Translations under genes and position numbers: made by a program
Assembly (NCBI GenBank): GCA_902774055.1
Contig: CACYGX010000013.1
Location: 62,001-126,000, forward strand
Direction: 5' to 3'
Source of the DNA: an uncultured Bacteroidales bacterium
GTDB lineage: Bacteria > Bacteroidota > Bacteroidia > Bacteroidales > Muribaculaceae
DNA: 64,000 bases
Notes under the pieces: model-generated
What the model was told of the DNA's origin: nothing
The model's input: only the letters and a program-made list of their open reading frames with translations
The model's database searches: none
In this document: positions 10,058 to 34,906 of the stretch, in pieces
Layout of the letters: every line of letters begins with the position of its first letter
Numbering within the stretch: the first letter of the stretch is position 1

Positions 10058-10816
10058 TTATTGCTGTGAATCGACTTGTTCCTTAATCCAGTCATAGCCC
10101 TTGTCCTCGAGTTCAAGCGCCAATTCGGGGCCAGCGCTCATGACGATGCGACCCTTGTACAGGACATGCACAAAGTCGGGCTTGATGTAGTCAAGCAGAC
10201 GCTGGTAGTGGGTGATGACGATCGTGGCGTTGTCCTTGCTCTTGAGGGTATTCACGCCGCTGGCGACGATGCGCAGGGCATCGATGTCCAGACCGCTGTC
10301 CGTCTCGTCGAGGATGCTCAATTTGGGCTCCAGCATCGCCATTTGGAAAATCTCGTTGCGTTTCTTCTCACCGCCCGAGAAACCCTCGTTGACAGCGCGT
10401 GAGGCCAGTTTGTTGTCGAGTTGCACGATGCTGCGCTTTTCGCGCATCAGTTTCAGGAAGTCGGCGGCGCTCAACGGCTCTTGACCGAAATATTTGCGCT
10501 TCTCGTTCAAAGCGGTGCGCATGAAGTTGACCATCGACACACCAGGAATCTCAACGGGGTACTGGAAACTCAAGAACAGGCCCTCGTGGGCGCGATCTTC
10601 GGGTGAAAGGGCCAGCAGGTCCTTGCCATTGAACTCGACACTGCCCCCCGTCACGGTATAGGCGGGATTGCCCGTGAGAACGGCACTCAACGTGCTCTTG
10701 CCAGAGCCGTTGGGCCCCATGATGGCATGCACTTCACCTGGCTTGACGGTCAAGTTGATGCCTTTCAATATCTGCTTGTCCTCTATCGAGGCCTGTAAGT
10801 CTTTGATTATTAGCAT
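10058..10816 (-). CDS. sufC: Fe-S cluster assembly ATPase SufC
   Basis: A 252-residue soluble ABC ATPase. Walker A is 'GPNGSGKSTLSAVLTG', the signature is 'FSGGEKKRNEI', and Walker B is 'LSILDETDSGLD' with the SufC-typical DETDSGLD. It drives conformational change of the SufB-SufD scaffold. The start ATG follows a 70-bp gap from sufB that is filled with TTAGTCC microrepeats, the only sizeable gap in the operon. Confidence 0.96.
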   Translation of the reverse strand: MLIIKDLQASIEDKQILKGINLTVKPGEVHAIMGPNGSGKSTLSAVLTGNPAYTVTGGSVEFNGKDLLALSPEDRAHEGLFLSFQYPVEIPGVSMVNFMRTALNEKRKYFGQEPLSAADFLKLMREKRSIVQLDNKLASRAVNEGFSGGEKKRNEIFQMAMLEPKLSILDETDSGLDIDALRIVASGVNTLKSKDNATIVITHYQRLLDYIKPDFVHVLYKGRIVMSAGPELALELEDKGYDWIKEQVDSQQ

Positions 10817-10823
10817 ATTTAGT

Positions 10824-10868
10824 TGTTAGTTTTTAGTCCTTAGTCCTTAGTTTTTAGTCCTTGGTTTT
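10824..10868. repeat. TTAGTCC / TTAGTTT microrepeat inside the suf operon
   Basis: Tandem 7-9 nt units (TTAGTTTTTAGTCC, TTAGTCC) fill the sufB-sufC gap. Read on the minus strand they give GGACTAA...AAAAACTAA immediately before sufC, the same motif and orientation as at 32196-32229 before an LRR gene. Confidence 0.6.
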
Positions 10869-21440: not shown

Positions 21441-23705
21441 TTATTTGAGGTAGTGGGCGGTGATGGATTGGGGGCAGGCCTTCATGGCGCGAGGGGTGCC
21501 GTGGTAGATGATGGTGCCGCCCAGGTCGCCGGCGCCGGGGCCTAGTTCGATGACGTAGTCGGCGGCCTTGATGACGTCGGTGTTGTGCTCGATGACATAG
21601 ACCGTGTTGCCCATATCGACCATCTGCTCGAAGAGGTCGATGAGGTGGCGCACGTCCTTGAGGTGGAGTCCGTCGGTAGGTTCATCAATGACGAAGGTGC
21701 CGCGCTGCCCGCCTGCCTCGATGGGCATCGTGTATTGCTTGAGGCATGAGGCCATCTTGAGTCGCTGGAGCTCGCCTCCGGACAAGGTGCTCAGGGCTTG
21801 GTTCAGGTGCAGGTAGTGCAGGCCGACGTCCATCATGGGTTTGAGTTTTTCCTCGATGCTGGTGCCCTTGAAGAACTCGCTGGCTCGTCGAACGGACAAG
21901 TCCATGACCTCAGCGATGTTCATGCCGTCGAGCGTATATTCCAGTGCTTCACGGCTGTAACGCAGGCCGTGGCAGGCCTCGCATGTCGTCTCGATGTTGT
22001 CCATGAAGGCCATCTCGGCGATAACGACGCCCTTGCCGCCGCACACGGGGCAACCGCCCTTGCCGTTGAAGGTAAAGTACTGCTCTTTGATCTTATGGGC
22101 CTTGGCAAAGCGCTTGCGGATGTCGGGAGCCACGTCCATGTAGGTCGCTGGCGTGGAGCGGAGGCTCACGCCGATGTTTTTCTGGCTGATATACACGACG
22201 TCACCGTGTTCGCGGCGAAAGCATTCCATCAGCGAACTCTTGCCCGAGCCAGCCACTCCCGCGACGACGGCAAAAATGCCCATGGGCAGGTCGATGGAGA
22301 TGTCCTTGAGGTTGTGCAGCGTGGCGTGGCGTAGCGGGAAGGTTTGGTGCACTTCGCGCGGTTGGGGCTTGAAGTCGCCGTGCTGACTCAGCATCTGGCC
22401 CGTGCTGGTGCCGCTGTGCAACAACTGCTGGTAGTTGCCTTCAAAGATGATGCGGCCTCCCTGACTGCCTGGTCCTGGGCCCAAATCGACGATGTGGTCG
22501 GCAATGCCAATCATCTCGCGGTGGTGCTCGACGAGCAGGACGGTGTTGCCCGCGTCGCGCAGGCGCTTGACCGAATGCTTCATCTTCTCGATATCGTGGT
22601 CGTGAAGGCCCGTGCTGGGCTCATCCAGGATGTAGAGCACGTCAGCGAGCGACGAGTTGATGTATTTGGCGATTTTGCAGCGTTGTGCTTCACCGCCCGA
22701 TAGCGTGCCCACGCCGCGGTCCAGACTCAGGTAGCCCAAGCCGATTTCTTCCAGTGCCGTCAATCGGGCGCTGATGGCCTGCTTGATGTCAACAGCGAGA
22801 GGCGAGATGAGCGACTTGACCCACTTGTTAAGGCGGGTGATGGACATGGCACAGGCGTCGGCGATGTTGATGCCATCGATTTTGCACGAGAGGACACGGG
22901 GACTCAATCGGGAACCGCCGCAGTCGGGGCATACGCCCATGTTGAGCATGGGGTTGAGGACGGCGGCGTGCAGCAGGCCTTCTTCGCTGTTGATGATGCT
23001 GCGGTACATGCGTGGGATGATGCCCTCATACTTGGCCGACTTGGGCCAGTTGGCGGGCGGGTTCTTCAGGCGGATCTGCGGACTGTTGAGGAAGAGGTCG
23101 AGTTCCTCGGGTGAGTAGTCGCGGATCTTTTTGTCCAGGTCAAAAAGGCCGCTGTGGGCATAGCGGATCCAGCGCCAGCCGCCCTTGCCGAAGGCGATAT
23201 AGTGAATCGTGTCCTCGTCGTTGAGGCTCTTGTCAAAATCGACGAGTTTGTGGATGTCCAGTTCGCGGATTTCGCCCAGGCCCGAACATCGCGGACAGCT
23301 ACCCTCGGGGTGGTTGAAACTGAACGACTCGGCATAGCCCACAAAGGGCTGGCCTACACGTGAAAACAGCAAGCGCAGCAGCGCGGCGATGTCGGTGTAG
23401 GTCGCCACGGTCGAACGTGAGTTCTGGGCGGGCTTCTTCTGGTCGATGACGATGGCTATGGGCAGATTCTCGATGGCGTCCACATGGGGACGGCCGTACT
23501 TGGGCAGGTACTGCTGCACGAACGACGGGAAGGTGTCGTTCAGTTCCCGCCTCGACTTGGCCGCAATGGTGTCGAGCACGAGCGAACTCTTGCCCGAGCC
23601 TGATACGCCCGTGAACACTGTGATCTGATGCTTGGGAATCTCCAGGGAGACCTCTTTCAAGTTGTTCTCCCTCGCCCCCTTAATAACTATCTTGTCGCCA
23701 TTCAT
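21441..23705 (-). CDS. UvrA-like ABC ATPase (short, UvrA2-type)
   Basis: 754 residues against about 940 for canonical UvrA. Two ABC domains are present: Walker A '[13 protein letters not shown]' and '[13 protein letters not shown]', signatures '[11 protein letters not shown]' and '[11 protein letters not shown]', and Walker B '[13 protein letters not shown]' and '[12 protein letters not shown]'. Zinc-type CxxC pairs occur in 'CPRCSGLGE', 'CPDCGGSRL', 'CPVCGGKG' and 'CEACHGL'. The reduced length suggests the UvrA2 class, which is tied to drug tolerance rather than the UvrB-dependent repair complex; that is an inference. It is transcribed alone, away from the four-helix-bundle gene. Confidence 0.88.
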
Positions 23706-23726: not shown

Positions 23727-23789
23727 CTAGAGGTTCTAGAAAAACTAGACAGGATAGATTATCTGGAAGCTCTTGTTTTTCTTGAAATC
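23727..23789. repeat. Degenerate CTAGANNNN array, 9-bp phase
   Basis: CTAG occurs at 23727, 23736 and 23745, exactly 9 bp apart. In the same phase come decayed units ATAG (23754), CTGG (23763), CTTG (23772) and CTTG (23781). It looks like the eroded outer end of the array at 23833-23895. Confidence 0.75.
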
Positions 23790-23814
23790 GAACTGGATGT
23801 TGTGGTTTTAATAG

Positions 23815-23823
23815 TATCTTTGC
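23815..23823 (+). promoter_or_regulatory. -7 box (TATCTTTGC) for the four-helix-bundle gene
   Basis: An exact TAnnTTTGC match. Transcription would start at about 23830, so the intact CTAGA array becomes the 5' untranslated region. No clear -33 TTTG is seen. Confidence 0.55.
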
Positions 23824-23826
23824 GGG

Positions 23827-23904
23827 ATGGAACTAGATGTTCTAGAGGAACTAGATGTTCTAGATAATCTAGAGGATCTAGATGTTCTAGAGGGATTTTG
23901 TTAA
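23827..23904 (+). CDS. Possible 25-codon leader ORF made of the CTAGA repeat
   Basis: ATG at 23827 opens a frame through the whole repeat array to TAA at 23904. It encodes a leucine every third residue (LDVLEELDVLDNLEDL...). It is in the same frame as the downstream gene, from which two stop codons separate it. It may be a translated leader or only a by-product of a 9-bp repeat that happens to contain no stop in this frame. Confidence 0.25.
   Translation: MELDVLEELDVLDNLEDLDVLEGFC
23833..23895. repeat. CTAGANNNN tandem array, seven units, 9-bp phase
   Basis: CTAGA begins at 23833, 23842, 23851, 23860, 23869, 23878 and 23887 without a break. The four variable bases are TGTT, GGAA, TGTT, TAAT, GGAT, TGTT and GGGA. 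Each unit contains the palindrome CTAG. Confidence 0.95.
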
Positions 23905-23925
23905 AAATAAAACGTCTTGTTTATT

Positions 23926-24606
23926 ATGAGTAATGTTGAGAACTCTAGGCCTGAACGGCAGCTGGAAACGGTCTTGCGTAAACAGACTAACTGGAAGAAC
24001 CTGTGGTTCTACCAGAAAACGGTGGTGCTCTACCAAATGACCTATGTCTTCACAAGGAGATTCCTTGCTCCCTATGGGGATCGCACCGTTGACCAGATGG
24101 TGCAGGCTGCTCGCTCGGGAAAGCAGAATATTGTTGAGGGCTCGGCCGATGGGGTGACCTCGATGGAGATGGAACTGAAGTTGCTCAATGTTGCACGTTC
24201 TAGCATTCAAGAACTCCTGGAGGACTATGAGGATTATCTGCCGGCTCACAAGCTGTCGAAGTGGACTCCACGGCATCCGCGATATGACCAAATGCTGTGC
24301 TATTGCCGTGAGCATAACCACTTGAAGGATTATGAGCCCTATTTCGAGAAATGGTCGGATGAGGAGGCCGCCAACATCGCTATTACGCTTTGCCGCATGG
24401 TGGACAAGATGATGATGACCTACCAGAAGAAAAAAGAAGAGGAGTTCGTCACTGAAGGCGGCATAAAAGAGCGCATGACTGCAGCACGCTTGGGTTATCG
24501 CACCAACCAACGTGAGATGATAGAACGGCTTAACCGGGAAATCGAAGAACTCAAGAGCGAGAACGCGATACTGAAGGAGAAATTGAAAGAGTTGAGGGGA
24601 TTTTAA
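23926..24606 (+). CDS. Four-helix-bundle protein of the 23S rRNA intervening-sequence (S23) family with suffix domain
   Basis: 226 residues from the ATG at 23926; an upstream TTG start is possible but less likely. Residues ~20-130 match the S23 four-helix-bundle family: 'WKNLWFYQKTVVLYQMTYVF', 'MVQAARSGKQNIVEGSADGV', 'MELKLLNVARSSIQELLEDY'. A long extension follows, and the protein ends in a coiled coil 'REMIERLNREIEELKSENAI'. Relatives are encoded inside 23S rRNA insertions and include the Avd subunit of diversity-generating retroelements, which binds nucleic acid. Here the gene is free-standing, with no reverse transcriptase or rRNA nearby, and is flanked on both sides by CTAGANNNN arrays. 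The cellular role is unknown. Confidence 0.85.
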   Translation: MSNVENSRPERQLETVLRKQTNWKNLWFYQKTVVLYQMTYVFTRRFLAPYGDRTVDQMVQAARSGKQNIVEGSADGVTSMEMELKLLNVARSSIQELLEDYEDYLPAHKLSKWTPRHPRYDQMLCYCREHNHLKDYEPYFEKWSDEEAANIAITLCRMVDKMMMTYQKKKEEEFVTEGGIKERMTAARLGYRTNQREMIERLNREIEELKSENAILKEKLKELRGF

Positions 24607-24608
24607 TT

Positions 24609-24680
24609 CTAGATGCTCTAGAGGAACTAGAAACACTAGATGCTCTAGAAGCTCTAGATTATCTAGATTTTCTAGAGGGG
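24609..24680. repeat. CTAGANNNN tandem array, eight units, 9-bp phase
   Basis: CTAGA begins at 24609, 24618, 24627, 24636, 24645, 24654, 24663 and 24672. Variable tetramers are TGCT, GGAA, AACA, TGCT, AGCT, TTAT, TTTT and GGGG. It starts two bases after the stop codon of the four-helix-bundle gene. Confidence 0.95.
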
Positions 24681-24691
24681 TGAGGGTAAAA

Positions 24692-24723
24692 AAATGAGGC
24701 GGGTTGTGGGGCCCGCCTCATTT
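24692..24723 (-). terminator. Intrinsic terminator of the prolyl oligopeptidase gene
   Basis: Stem AAATGAGGCGGG / CCCGCCTCATTT with an 8-nt loop is followed on the minus strand by a run of T. It lies just past the expected stop at 24733 but inside the frameshifted extension, which supports 24733 as the ancestral gene end. Confidence 0.8.
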
Positions 24724-24732
24724 GCTTGGTGT

Positions 24733-26839
24733 TTACTTTTTGTACTTGTACTTGACGCCCAGGTTGTACATGATGAAGGCCTGGATGTCGGTGTACTCGT
24801 CGATGATCTTGCTGATGGGCTTGCTGTGGCCGTGGCCAGCCTTGCTGTCGATGCTGGTTGCCGGTGTTGCAGTGCTGCAACTCGGCGGCATACTTGAAGC
24901 TGTGGGCGGGCACGACGCGGTCATCGTGGTCACCAGTGGTTACCATGATGGCGGGGTAGGGCGTGCCATCGTTCTTGATGTTGTGCAGGGGAGAGTAGCT
25001 GCGCAGGTAGTTGAACATCTCGGGGCTGTCGTCGCTGCGGCCATAGTCGGGAGCCCAGTTCCAACCGATGGTGAACTCGTGGTAGCGGAGCATGTCCATC
25101 ACACCCACCTGGGGCACTGCTGCGGCAAACAGGTCGGGACGCTGATTAACGACGGCGCCGACGAGCAGGCCGCCATTGCTGGCACCGTTGCAGGCGAGCT
25201 TCTTGGGGTTGGTGTACTTGTTGTCGATGAGCCACTCGGCAGCGGCGATGAAGTCGTCAAACACGTTCTGCTTGTTCATCTTGGTGCCTGCCTGGTGCCA
25301 CTCCTCGCCGTACTCGCCACCACCGCGCAGATTGACGTAGGCGCAGATGCCGCCACAGTCCATCATGGCAAACAGGGTGCGGGTATAGGTGAAGGCGGGG
25401 TTGAGGCTCACGTTGAAGCCGCCGTAGCCATAGAGGAAGGTGGGACGCTGACCGTCACGCTTCAGGCCCTTCTTGTAAACGAGGAACATGGGGATGCGCG
25501 TGCCGTCCTTGCTGTTGAAGAAGACCTGCTCGGTGACATAGTCCTCGCTCTTGAGGTTCACCTTGGGCTGGAAGAACAATTCGCTCTTGCCGGTCTCCAG
25601 GTCGTACTTGTAGATGGCGCCGGGGAAGGTGTAGCTGGTAAAGCTGTAGAAAACCTCCTTGGCCTTATTCTTGGCGCTGAAGCCTACCGAGCCATAGGTG
25701 GGCAACTCAATCTCGCGGATGAGCTTGCCATTCTGGTCGTAGAGGTAGGGATGGCTCGAAGCGTCCTTGTCATAGGTGAGGATGAATTTATGGTCGGCCA
25801 TCGTGGCTCCAGTGAGAACCGATTCCTGCTCGGGAATGAACTCGGCCAGGGTAGCGGGCGACAGGTGCTCGGCATCATAGGTGACGATCTTGCCCTTGGG
25901 GGCATTCTCGTTGGTGGTGACATAGATCTTGCCGTTGTCGATGCCGATGATGCCGCGCTCATACTTCATGCCTCCAATGAGCTGCACGTAGTGCGGATTG
26001 CGGTCCTTGAGGTCCTTGACGTAGATGTCGTTGCCCTCGGCGTCGCTCTTCCACAGGATGACGTAACGCTCGTCATCGCTGACGCTCACCTGGTGGAAGT
26101 GCAAGGGCTCGCTCTTGTCCTGATACTCGATGTAGTCCTCGCTTTGGGGCGTGCCCAGCTTGTGGTAATACACCTTCTGGTACTCATTCTTGGACGACTT
26201 GGCATCGTCGGGGGCATCATAGCCGCTGTAGAAGAAGCCGTCACCCAGCCACTGGGCGTCGGTGAACTTGGCCCAGACGATGTGGTCATCGAGCACCTTG
26301 TCCTCCTTGAGGTCCTTGACGTAGATCTCGTTCCAGTCGCTGCCGTTGCGGGTGATGACGTAGGCCAGGTAGCGGCCGTCGTTAGAGAAATCCAGCTGCT
26401 GCAGGGCCACGGTGCCGTCGTCGCTCAACGTGTTGGGGTCGAGCACCATCTTGTGGTTGCCATTCTTGTCGTACTCGTAGAGCACGCTCTGGTTCTGCAG
26501 ACCGTCGTTCTTGAAGAAGTAGAATTTGTCCTTCACCTTGAACGGAGCGCCCATCTTCTCGTAGTTGGCGAGTTCGGTAATGCGCTTTTTCACGTCCTTG
26601 CGGAACGGGATTTTTGACAGGTAGTTTTGAGTCACCTTGTTCTGGGCATTCACCCAAGCCTCGGTCTCGGTGCTGCGGTCATCCTCGAGCCAGCGGTAGG
26701 GGTCGGGCACCTGTGTGCCGAAGTAAGTGTCCACCGTGTCCATGCGCGGAGGGTCGGGATAGTTGATGCGAGCCTGCGCCGTTACAGCCGACGCTGCAAT
26801 CAATGCACTGCTCATGAGTAAAATCCTTTCTTTTTTCAT
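24733..26839 (-). pseudogene. Prolyl oligopeptidase (S9A), frameshifted before the catalytic histidine
   Basis: A secreted S9A serine peptidase with signal peptide MKKERILLMSSALIAASAVT and N-terminal 'PDPYRWLEDDRSTETEAWV'. The propeller and hydrolase domains are intact through the Ser motif 'CNGASNGGLLVGA' and the Asp motif 'GDHDDRVVPAHS'. After 'TGNQ' near 24854 the frame shifts. The family tail 'IDSKAGHGHSKPISKIIDEY', with the catalytic His, continues in another frame and ends at 24733. The residues usually found between (Pro-Val-Leu-Ile-Arg) are missing, consistent with a ~14-bp deletion. The shifted frame instead runs on to 24659 through a terminator with junk sequence. It is either a real inactivation or an assembly error. 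Confidence 0.85.
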
Positions 26840-26879
26840 TGTGATTCTTGAATTAAATATTTCGCTTTCTTGATATTGC

Positions 26880-27851
26880 TTATTGTTCGAGTTGGGCAAT
26901 GACATTGAGGAGGGTCTGGCCGACCTGGGCGAGGGTGGCGGGGTCAATGCTGCTCATGGTGTCGCCCAACGTGTGCCACTCGGGGCAGAACCCCGACGGG
27001 CTGTCGCTGCGCAGGTCGATGATATCGACGCAGGGAATGCCCGCGCGGTTGATGAAGATGTGGTCGTCGGTCACAGCACCACCCTGGGCGTTGATGAAGT
27101 GATTGCCCGCGGCATTTTTCCAGACAAGGTCAACAAAACCGCCCGCATATTGTGTCGAGTAGTACTCGCGGGTGAAAGTGGCATTGGCCGAACCCACCAT
27201 GTCGAGCAGGATGCCGAATAGCGGTTTGTAGCTTGACACATGGGGATGCTGCGTCCAGTACTGTGTGCCCAATCCCCAAGACTCCTCATTGTCGTCCACA
27301 CCCATGTCCTCGGCATCCACGAGCAGGATGTCGATGCCCAGAGCGGTTCCTTCCTTTTTGAGTTGCTGTGCCAGTTGCAGCAGTACGCCCACGCCGCTGG
27401 CACCGTCGTTGGCGCCCATGACGGGCTTGCGGTGGTTGGCGGCGTCGGGATCATTGTCGGCCCAGGGGCGGGTGTCCCAGTGGGCGAGTAGCAACAGGCG
27501 CTGGCTGGCTTCGGGGTTGATGACGCCAATGATGTTCTTGATGCCCAACGGCCCCTCGGTAGCCGTCTGCACAGTGCCCGTCTGCATAATGACGGTGTCG
27601 CAACTGGCCTTCAAGGTTGCCATGAGCCAGTCGGCGCACTGGGCGTGAGCCGGCGTGCCGGGCACACGAGGCCCAAATTCACACTGCTGGCGTGTCAAGT
27701 CCAGGGCGGCATTGCCGTCGAAGGCTTGCCTATTGTTGCTAGCCGTTGCAGCCGTGTCGCTTGCTGCCTGTCCGCTGGCAGTAGAGCCATTGGTGCTGCC
27801 ACATGCCGTGATGAGGGAGAGCAGCATTATATACAATAATGTCATTCTCAT
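26880..27851 (-). CDS. M28-family zinc peptidase / glutaminyl cyclase-like lipoprotein
   Basis: 323 residues with a lipoprotein signal (LLSLITACGS, lipidated Cys at ~17). The M28 fold shows metal ligands in order: 'LLAHWDTRP', 'GANDGASGVG', 'LLVDAEDMG', 'AVTDDHIFIN' and 'CPEWHTLGDT'. The overall pattern is closest to bacterial glutaminyl-peptide cyclotransferases, which form N-terminal pyroglutamate on exported proteins, but an aminopeptidase role cannot be excluded. It sits on the outer or inner membrane facing the periplasm or surface. The prolyl oligopeptidase gene follows 40 bp downstream. Confidence 0.87.
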   Translation of the reverse strand: MRMTLLYIMLLSLITACGSTNGSTASGQAASDTAATASNNRQAFDGNAALDLTRQQCEFGPRVPGTPAHAQCADWLMATLKASCDTVIMQTGTVQTATEGPLGIKNIIGVINPEASQRLLLLAHWDTRPWADNDPDAANHRKPVMGANDGASGVGVLLQLAQQLKKEGTALGIDILLVDAEDMGVDDNEESWGLGTQYWTQHPHVSSYKPLFGILLDMVGSANATFTREYYSTQYAGGFVDLVWKNAAGNHFINAQGGAVTDDHIFINRAGIPCVDIIDLRSDSPSGFCPEWHTLGDTMSSIDPATLAQVGQTLLNVIAQLEQ

Positions 27852-32126: not shown

Positions 32127-32195
32127 AATATTATTATATTTAATTGTCTTTGTTGTCTTTCTTTACTTCTGATTAAAAGTATGCGGATGATAACT

Positions 32196-32229
32196 GAGGA
32201 CTAAGGACTAGGGACTAAAAACTAAAAAT
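32196..32229. repeat. GGACTAA / AAAAACTAA microrepeat
   Basis: Tandem units GAGGACTAAGGACTAGGG then ACTAAAAACTAAAAATA, the same family and orientation to the next gene as the repeat before sufC. Confidence 0.6.
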
Positions 32230-32265
32230 AATGCCCTTTTTCTTTCATTTTAGTGAATGTTTCAT

Positions 32266-34819: not shown

Positions 34820-34835
34820 AGCTCGCTTCGCTCGC

Positions 34836-34863
34836 AGATTAGAGATTAGAGATTAGAGATTAG
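34836..34863. repeat. Four perfect AGATTAG heptamers
   Basis: AGATTAG repeated four times head to tail, 17 bp after the preceding stop codon. Confidence 0.9.
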
Positions 34864-34867
34864 TGAG

Positions 34868-34906
34868 TGGCATCCGCATCCCTAACGACAGGGGTGCGGA
34901 TGCTAT
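34868..34906 (+). terminator. Hairpin after the LRR/DUF285 gene
   Basis: GGCATCCGCATCCCT (34869-34883) pairs with AGGGGTGCGGATGCT (34890-34904). The stem is strong but without a clear T-run. Its left arm is the GGCATSCGC core shared with other gaps. Confidence 0.6.

What the first reader, a model, noticed from the sequence alone, without database searches (positions are those of the whole stretch)
23727..24680. Four-helix-bundle (S23-family) gene enclosed by 9-bp-phased palindromic CTAGANNNN arrays
Seven uninterrupted CTAGANNNN units (23833-23895) precede the gene and eight (24609-24680) begin two bases after its stop, with a decayed block further out (23727-23789). Units are exactly 9 bp apart and only the four trailing bases vary. 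A consensus -7 box (23815-23823) lies just before the inner array, so both intact arrays would be in the mRNA, one 5' and one 3'. Because CTAG is its own complement and both arrays have the same period, the two ends can pair at every unit and close the ORF into a stem-loop. S23 relatives are encoded inside 23S rRNA intervening sequences closed by a terminal stem, and the Avd subunit of diversity-generating retroelements shares this fold and binds nucleic acid. Inference: a self-structured RNA, or an RNA/DNA element recognised by its own protein.
Basis: partly seen in the sequence, partly recalled or inferred. Interest (0 to 1): 0.82.

Follow-up and report, generated by a model that had tools for sequence, protein, structure and literature searches.

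The report
S23 genes with matching repeat arrays
A little-understood bacterial protein family is usually encoded between rows of short evenly spaced DNA repeats, branches of the family have their own repeat motifs, and the same repeats lie scattered between other genes of the genome, which suggests a protein-repeat partnership for which I found no description.

Summary
The arrays are real and far beyond chance. The gene encodes an S23-type four-helix-bundle protein with the TIGR04258 suffix. The architecture is general: by the strict test 53 of 59 TIGR04258 loci of the own genome and 60 relatives, and 65 of 77 further named loci, have a phased array on at least one side, as do 46 of 53 plain S23 genes (mostly 7-bp period, inverted). 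Protein branches have their own core and period: CTAG/9, CTCnGAG/9, GTCnGAC/10, TCGA/8, ACGGA/9, GTTTAG/7 and more. Core class follows the protein tree (21 changes against a shuffled mean of 57.7). Arrays also lie solo in intergenic gaps, and genomes owning a gene class have more arrays of that class, not of the other classes tested. At one orthologous site 12 of 14 species lack the gene, and 9 of these 12 carry a solo array, of differing classes. The logic resembles REP/RAYT, but the protein matches no transposase domain, no reverse transcriptase was found in the own genome, and arrays show no selected hairpin. The RNA stem is not supported as the general principle. Most likely: a DNA-binding protein that maintains and spreads its cognate arrays. 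Binding and spreading are inferred, not shown.

The parts
23926..24606 (+). four-helix-bundle (S23/TIGR02436) gene with TIGR04258 suffix and C-terminal long helix, 226 aa
23833..23895 (.). 5' phased array, 7 units of CTAGANNNN, period 9
24609..24680 (.). 3' phased array, 8 units of CTAGANNNN, period 9
23727..23789 (.). outer decayed array; lies at the spot where gene-less relatives carry solo arrays
   Evidence: 7 of 500 shuffles as high for this block
23816..23823 (+). TATCTTTG, fits the Bacteroidota -7 box TAnnTTTG (consensus recalled)
   Evidence: position relative to the array varies among relatives
21441..23705 (-). flanking UvrA-like gene (754 aa), next to the peptidase gene without the family gene in 12 species
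24659..26947 (-). flanking prolyl oligopeptidase ORF; its C-terminal end is in another frame than in 22 of the 24 nearest matches
24690..24724 (.). G+C-rich inverted repeat between array and peptidase gene, likely terminator
   Evidence: by eye; similar hairpins at this place in most relatives, by eye

Best explanation
The S23-type protein is the partner of the phased arrays. It recognises the array core as DNA (inferred), with core classes that go with protein branches, and it promotes persistence and spread of arrays of that class through intergenic DNA (inferred), much as RAYT proteins are thought to do for REP repeats. Gene plus flanking arrays is the gene-bearing unit; solo arrays are its gene-less relatives, either deletion remnants or independent copies. 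Shown: frequent gene-array linkage, co-diversification, class-specific enrichment in genomes, intergenic solo arrays, presence or absence of the gene at an orthologous site. Not shown: binding, and any movement. No catalytic domain was matched in the protein, so it probably works through host replication, repair or recombination (inferred).
For: Linkage: strict test (0 of 200 shuffles) 53 of 59 and 68 of 80 suffix loci (three loci are in both sets, leaving 65 of 77), 46 of 53 plain S23 loci, against 32 of 544 control stretches in the same loci as the 80 (0 of 100). Co-diversification: 19 labels, one of them 'none', need 21 changes on the protein tree (least 18, shuffled mean 57.7, 0 of 200; 85 rows); protein identity against array 5-mers among pairs of at most 80% identity, r=0.54 (n=95) and 0.60 (n=37), 0 of 500 permutations each. 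Class-specific enrichment within the genus, rank test: TCGA p=0.00013, CTCnGAG p=0.00026, CTAG p=0.011; the six cross-class comparisons have p 0.16 or more (from counts). Solo arrays: 16 of 16 viewed lie between the main ORFs (by eye). Site turnover: 2 of 14 species carry the gene between UvrA and peptidase; 9 of the other 12 carry a solo array. Between G000 and G017 the protein is 84% identical, UvrA 97.7% (first 128 residues) and peptidase 96.8% (249 residues). Asymmetric cores occur in both orientations, fitting double-stranded DNA.
Against: CTAG arrays occur in 21 of 53 genomes without a CTAG-class gene, and the presence/absence test for CTAG within the genus is not significant (Fisher p=0.11); G015, G021 and G008 have 119, 83 and 63 CTAG hits without a CTAG-class gene found. 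Genomes are drafts. No nuclease, recombinase or known DNA-binding domain was matched. No target-site duplication or recent transposition event was seen. Core class is inherited with the locus, so common descent explains part of the correlation. Adjacent spacers are no more alike than distant ones (0.584 and 0.573), so the birth of arrays is unexplained.
Confidence: 0.55

Rival explanations
1. The protein is a DNA-binding regulator or nucleoid organiser; arrays are its operators, kept by selection on the host and autoregulating the gene.
For: Arrays sit between genes and near promoters: the POP-UvrA arrays lie just upstream of the UvrA -7 box (by eye), and in CTAG/9 loci upstream arrays end a median 32 bp before the family's start codon (n=52). 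Cores are constant while spacers vary.
Against: Array class at one site changes between close species: G061 and G036, 98% identical in flanking coding DNA, differ. Of 12 gene-less species 9 have an array there and 3 do not. Arrays also sit between convergent genes.
Confidence: 0.22
2. The unit acts as RNA: arrays in the transcript pair to close the ORF, as in 23S rRNA intervening sequences, and the protein binds that RNA.
For: Window arrays pair in the predicted fold; plain S23 arrays are inverted in 29 of 33 loci, with slight excess spacer matching.
Against: No energy excess over spacer shuffles in 79 arrays; mixed orientation in asymmetric suffix classes; promoter-like boxes on either side of the array; solo arrays without the gene.
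Confidence: 0.08
3. Arrays are moved by another enzyme, a Y1 (HUH) transposase or a reverse transcriptase, with the S23 protein as accessory as in diversity-generating retroelements.
For: Avd of these retroelements belongs to the same fold (recalled); Y1 genes occur in G000 (5 matches) and in 34 of 37 genomes searched.
Against: No RVT_1 match in G000, G007, G008, G015, G017 and G021, all with 30 or more CTAG hits. Y1 numbers do not track arrays by inspection: G015 has 119 CTAG hits and one Y1 match under the cut-off, G016 has nine Y1 matches and 1 CTAG hit. None of 5 own-genome Y1 loci has CTAG, CTCnGAG or TCGA arrays in the 3.4-3.5 kb fetched. None of the 7 recurring neighbours scanned is a reverse transcriptase.
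Confidence: 0.07
4. Coincidence: phased repeats are common in these intergenic regions and S23 genes merely share the niche.
For: Control stretches also score at times: 32 of 544, 11 of 125.
Against: Flanks of the 80 named genes score about ten times as often as controls (91 of 156 at 0/200 against 32 of 544 at 0/100), and class goes with protein branch.
Confidence: 0.04

Closest known systems
REP repeats with RAYT (TnpA-REP) genes, 'REPtrons' (PMC2817692: abstract and one section read; PMC8266576: abstract; PMC3733652: abstract start in a listing)
   Same: gene flanked by its repeats, repeat and protein co-diversify, gene presence goes with repeat number, repeats intergenic, protein evolves faster than neighbours
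   Different: protein is S23 fold, not HUH/Y1; repeats are phased short cores without selected hairpin, not 20-40 bp palindromes; flanking arrays not always inverted in the suffix family
S23 / 23S rRNA intervening-sequence proteins (PF05635, TIGR02436)
   Same: same family and fold (2rld BT_0352, 2gsc Xcc0516)
   Different: not inside rRNA; carries TIGR04258 suffix; the array linkage was not found described in my ten searches
Avd of diversity-generating retroelements (recalled)
   Same: related four-helix-bundle fold
   Different: no reverse transcriptase found in the own genome; no template/variable repeat pair sought

Membership tests
REP/RAYT | gene flanked by cognate repeats | tested here: met
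   at least one side in most loci, both sides in 29 of 59
REP/RAYT | repeats and protein co-diversify | tested here: met
REP/RAYT | gene presence correlates with number of cognate repeats in the genome | tested here: met
   clear for TCGA and CTCnGAG; CTAG weaker (rank test p=0.011, Fisher p=0.11 within the genus); other classes not tested
REP/RAYT | protein is a Y1/HUH transposase (PF01797) | tested here: not met
   only PF05635 matched
REP/RAYT | repeat forms a structured hairpin | tested here: not met
   no excess over spacer shuffles
REP/RAYT | flanking repeats inverted | tested here: inconclusive
   plain S23 29 of 33 inverted; suffix family 4 of 10 inverted; CTAG core is symmetric
S23/IVP four-helix-bundle family | profile match | tested here: met
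   TIGR02436 30.3 bits (cut-off 24), TIGR04258 65.2 (cut-off 40); PF05635 E 1.8e-05 but 25.4 bits, under its gathering score 33.8
S23/IVP four-helix-bundle family | fold | tested here: met
   chains of 2gsc and 2rld take 8 of the first 10 ranks, probability 0.98-1.0, target TM 0.60-0.79, E 0.05-0.8; unrelated helical proteins are interleaved at lower probability
S23/IVP four-helix-bundle family | encoded inside a 23S rRNA intervening sequence | tested here: not met
   between UvrA-like and peptidase genes
Diversity-generating retroelement (Avd) | partner reverse transcriptase | tested here: not met
   0 RVT_1 matches in G000 (94% complete)
Diversity-generating retroelement (Avd) | template and variable repeat pair | not tested
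   -

The most novel reading that the evidence does not exclude
The S23/IVP fold as a whole, from plain S23 genes with mostly 7-bp arrays to suffix genes with 8-10-bp arrays, is the protein half of a large class of gene-repeat elements that spread short phased arrays through Bacteroidota and Verrucomicrobiota genomes without a transposase or reverse transcriptase of their own, with a motif specificity that can switch; rRNA intervening sequences and Avd would be offshoots.
Probability: 0.3. Interest if true: 0.95.

Novelty: categorically new. Interest (0 to 1): 0.85.

Why it matters
A widespread family of unknown function gains a concrete, testable partner. Some eighteen core classes with matched proteins give ready-made specificity swaps. 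It would explain short phased repeats scattered through many gut and rumen genomes, and would be a second, unrelated solution to what REP/RAYT does. If the protein spreads arrays with no nuclease, the route is itself new.

Tried and rejected
RNA stem: rejected as the general principle, though the window pair and plain S23 pairs keep it alive. Reverse-transcriptase or Y1 driver: set aside on absence or lack of tracking, judged by inspection. Fixed operon partner: neighbours of the 80 named genes vary; the commonest clusters, named from one representative each, are HsdM (10 of 80 loci), HsdS (10), HsdR (6), an Eco57I-type methylase (5) with a T5orf172-domain protein (6), and an alpha-2-macroglobulin-like protein beside the GATAG-class genes (7); UvrA and peptidase were found only beside L118. 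Phage carriage: no relative in viral contigs or phage records. Defence library: no match. PHROGs: weak matches only, best E 0.0018. PDB by sequence: none. Recent slippage origin: adjacent spacers no more alike than others. Papers: the ten searches listed no paper whose title or abstract start describes the linkage; only open-access papers are held. Passages of PMC10910872 and PMC5524665 only name such genes.

Cautions: core classes were defined by me from inspection and scored by rule, L050 labelled by hand; the tree used 55 of 59 relatives (by length) and 30 of 80 named loci picked by hand, it is a quick tree, and the TCGA/TAACG rows hang on a very long branch. Without the 'none' label it needs 19 changes for 18 classes. 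The correlation used 95 of 139 and 37 of 53 loci, those whose array passed a score. The 59 and 80 sets share three loci. In one search I labelled G024 'none' and G007 'other'; one search shows 7-bp arrays in both, so that tree's group counts are off; the G061/G036 contrast stands. The G006 hit runs into the peptidase gene and I count it as no array. In one search, 53 of 70 plain loci gave an ORF by my motif and 17 were dropped; most of the 53 are of the window's genus, and they were taken from the better-scoring matches, not drawn at random. In one search G028 is left out of the TCGA gene list because L046 is cut at a contig end; gene classes include matches under the TIGR04258 cut-off. Control and gene thresholds differ (0/100 and 0/200). 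In one search three arrays (L082, the first of L083, L084) are covered by overlapping ORFs that I took for shadow ORFs. GTTTAG/7 was counted but not tested against gene class.

Full report
What is there. The window holds the two intact CTAGANNNN arrays and the decayed outer block as described. The gene between them (23926-24606) matches TIGR02436 and, more strongly, TIGR04258 (65.2 bits, cut-off 40); Pfam PF05635 is matched under its gathering score. A model built on 63 sequences (mean pLDDT 83.5) has a helix bundle over residues 27-177 and a long C-terminal helix 180-223; the best solved matches are S23-family structures 2gsc and 2rld (E-values 0.05-0.8, so the match rests on fold and probability, not on E-value).

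The architecture is general. Of 61 genomes (own plus 60 relatives), 26 have a TIGR04258 match over the cut-off. I examined all 59 places listed, some under the cut-off: 54 have a phased array on at least one side and 29 on both at 1 or fewer of 100 dinucleotide shuffles; 53 of 59 at 0 of 200. Three of the five misses are cut or broken (L024 and L046 at contig ends, L041 without a full ORF); L072 and L073 are not. The same test called 11 of 125 control stretches of the window positive. Control stretches from these loci: 32 of 544 (0/100). A Prevotella nigrescens record annotated as a plasmid carries the family with a run of four CTAG units, period 9, after its stop (array by eye).

Protein branches have their own core. 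CTAG/9, CTAG/8, GATAG/9, CTATAG/9, CTCnGAG/9, GTCnGAC/10, TTATAAG/9, CTTAA/9, ACGGA/9, CTGGA/9, CCGG/9, TCGA/8, TAACG/9 and others. On the protein tree the 19 labels, one of them 'none', need 21 changes, the least possible being 18 and the shuffled mean 57.7. CTAG/9 itself needs 4 changes, and five labels (CTATAG, CTCnGAG, TTATAAG, TAGGA, CTTAG) need 2 when each is held against all others, so the fit is close, not perfect. The own genome shows the pattern: its paralog on another contig, 44% identical, has CTCnGAG arrays on both sides. Among pairs at most 80% identical, array 5-mer sharing rises with protein identity (r 0.54).

Plain S23 genes do the same. Genes of the family without the suffix, mostly about 120 aa, have arrays in 46 of 53 loci; 64 of 77 scoring flanks have period 7; where both sides score the arrays are inverted in 29 of 33, direct in 2 and ambiguous in 2. 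GTTTAG/7 arrays occur in 22 of 61 genomes, up to 90 hits on both strands together in one.

Arrays without the gene. The own genome has 68 four-unit CTAG hits (control 1), 9 of them at this gene. Sixteen arrays viewed in context all lie between the main ORFs, by eye; three are covered by overlapping ORFs that I set aside as shadow ORFs, and one sits in a gap of 46 bases between two genes of the same strand. CTAG arrays occur in 28 of 36 same-genus relatives and 0 of 24 genomes of other families. Within the genus, genomes with a gene of a class have more arrays of that class (TCGA 7 of 8 against 6 of 29; CTCnGAG 5 of 5 against 8 of 32; CTAG 8 of 8 against 21 of 29) and not of the other two classes. 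For CTAG only the rank test is significant (p 0.011; Fisher 0.11).

One site in many species. The UvrA-like gene lies beside the peptidase gene, with or without the family gene between them, in 14 of 30 fetched loci. Two carry the gene with CTAG arrays; of the other 12, nine carry a solo array at the same place, with CTAG, CCAG, CTTTAAGG-type or 7-bp cores, and three have none. Array class does not follow the species tree; G061 and G036 are 98% identical in flanking coding DNA and differ. Arrays of G061 and G035 share spacers while several cores differ by C/T (by eye), which hints at core switching in place. A second site between convergent genes could be read in 15 species: by eye CTAG in three and mixed CTAG/CCAG in one, CTATAG in one, decayed CCAG in one, GTCnGAC/10 in one, and no clear array in eight. 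The GTCnGAC array is in G025, which owns a GTCnGAC-class gene (L018).

Mechanism. The pattern is that of REP repeats and RAYT genes: RAYT genes lie between their repeats, co-evolve with them, and their presence goes with repeat number (PMC2817692, abstract and the section on RAYTs, REPs and BIMEs read). Here the protein is unrelated, so this is likeness in logic, not membership. Double-stranded DNA recognition is favoured because asymmetric cores occur in both orientations around suffix genes (10 of 26 loci resolved: 3 ++, 3 --, 3 +-, 1 -+) and arrays show no selected folding. How arrays are born and spread is open: several array-rich genomes show no reverse transcriptase, and Y1 transposases do not visibly track arrays.

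Range. Eight of the 80 records are titled Kiritimatiellae or Verrucomicrobia (64-69% identity). Six of the eight have a CTAG array at 0 of 200 on at least one side; L184 and L192 do not. Those six, with two records of uncultured bacteria, form one supported group (98; L184 and L192 were not in the tree). They are metagenome bins, so misbinning of single contigs cannot be excluded.

Noticed in passing
window 10814-10868, 32186-32231, 34824-34872, 486-594: Other phased 7-bp arrays (TTAGTCC, GGACTAA, AGATTAG, CTATTAA types); the AGATTAG type resembles the arrays of an own-genome plain S23 gene (L274).
   Followed up: partly
window 24727-24900: The peptidase gene's C-terminal part is in another frame than in 22 of the 24 nearest matches, so the gene looks frame-shifted near its end here.
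   Followed up: no
L124, L125, L128, L129, L164, L167, L168, L175, L179, L185, L190, L192; and L152, L153, L155, L157, L159, L160: Family genes often sit inside restriction-modification loci (HsdM, HsdS or HsdR neighbours in the first set; Eco57I-type methylase or a T5orf172-domain protein in the second).
   Followed up: partly
L200, L207, L216, L217, L199, L203: In six of 20 relatives another family gene (CTTAA or CTAG class) lies within about 2.3 kb of the 3' end of the same UvrA-like gene.
   Followed up: no
L323: In Prevotella nigrescens the family gene also neighbours a prolyl oligopeptidase gene, in a different arrangement.
   Followed up: no
L083 4040-4130: Short-period AACTATT/TTAACT-type repeats directly beside a CTAG array, so array classes can be stacked.
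   Followed up: no
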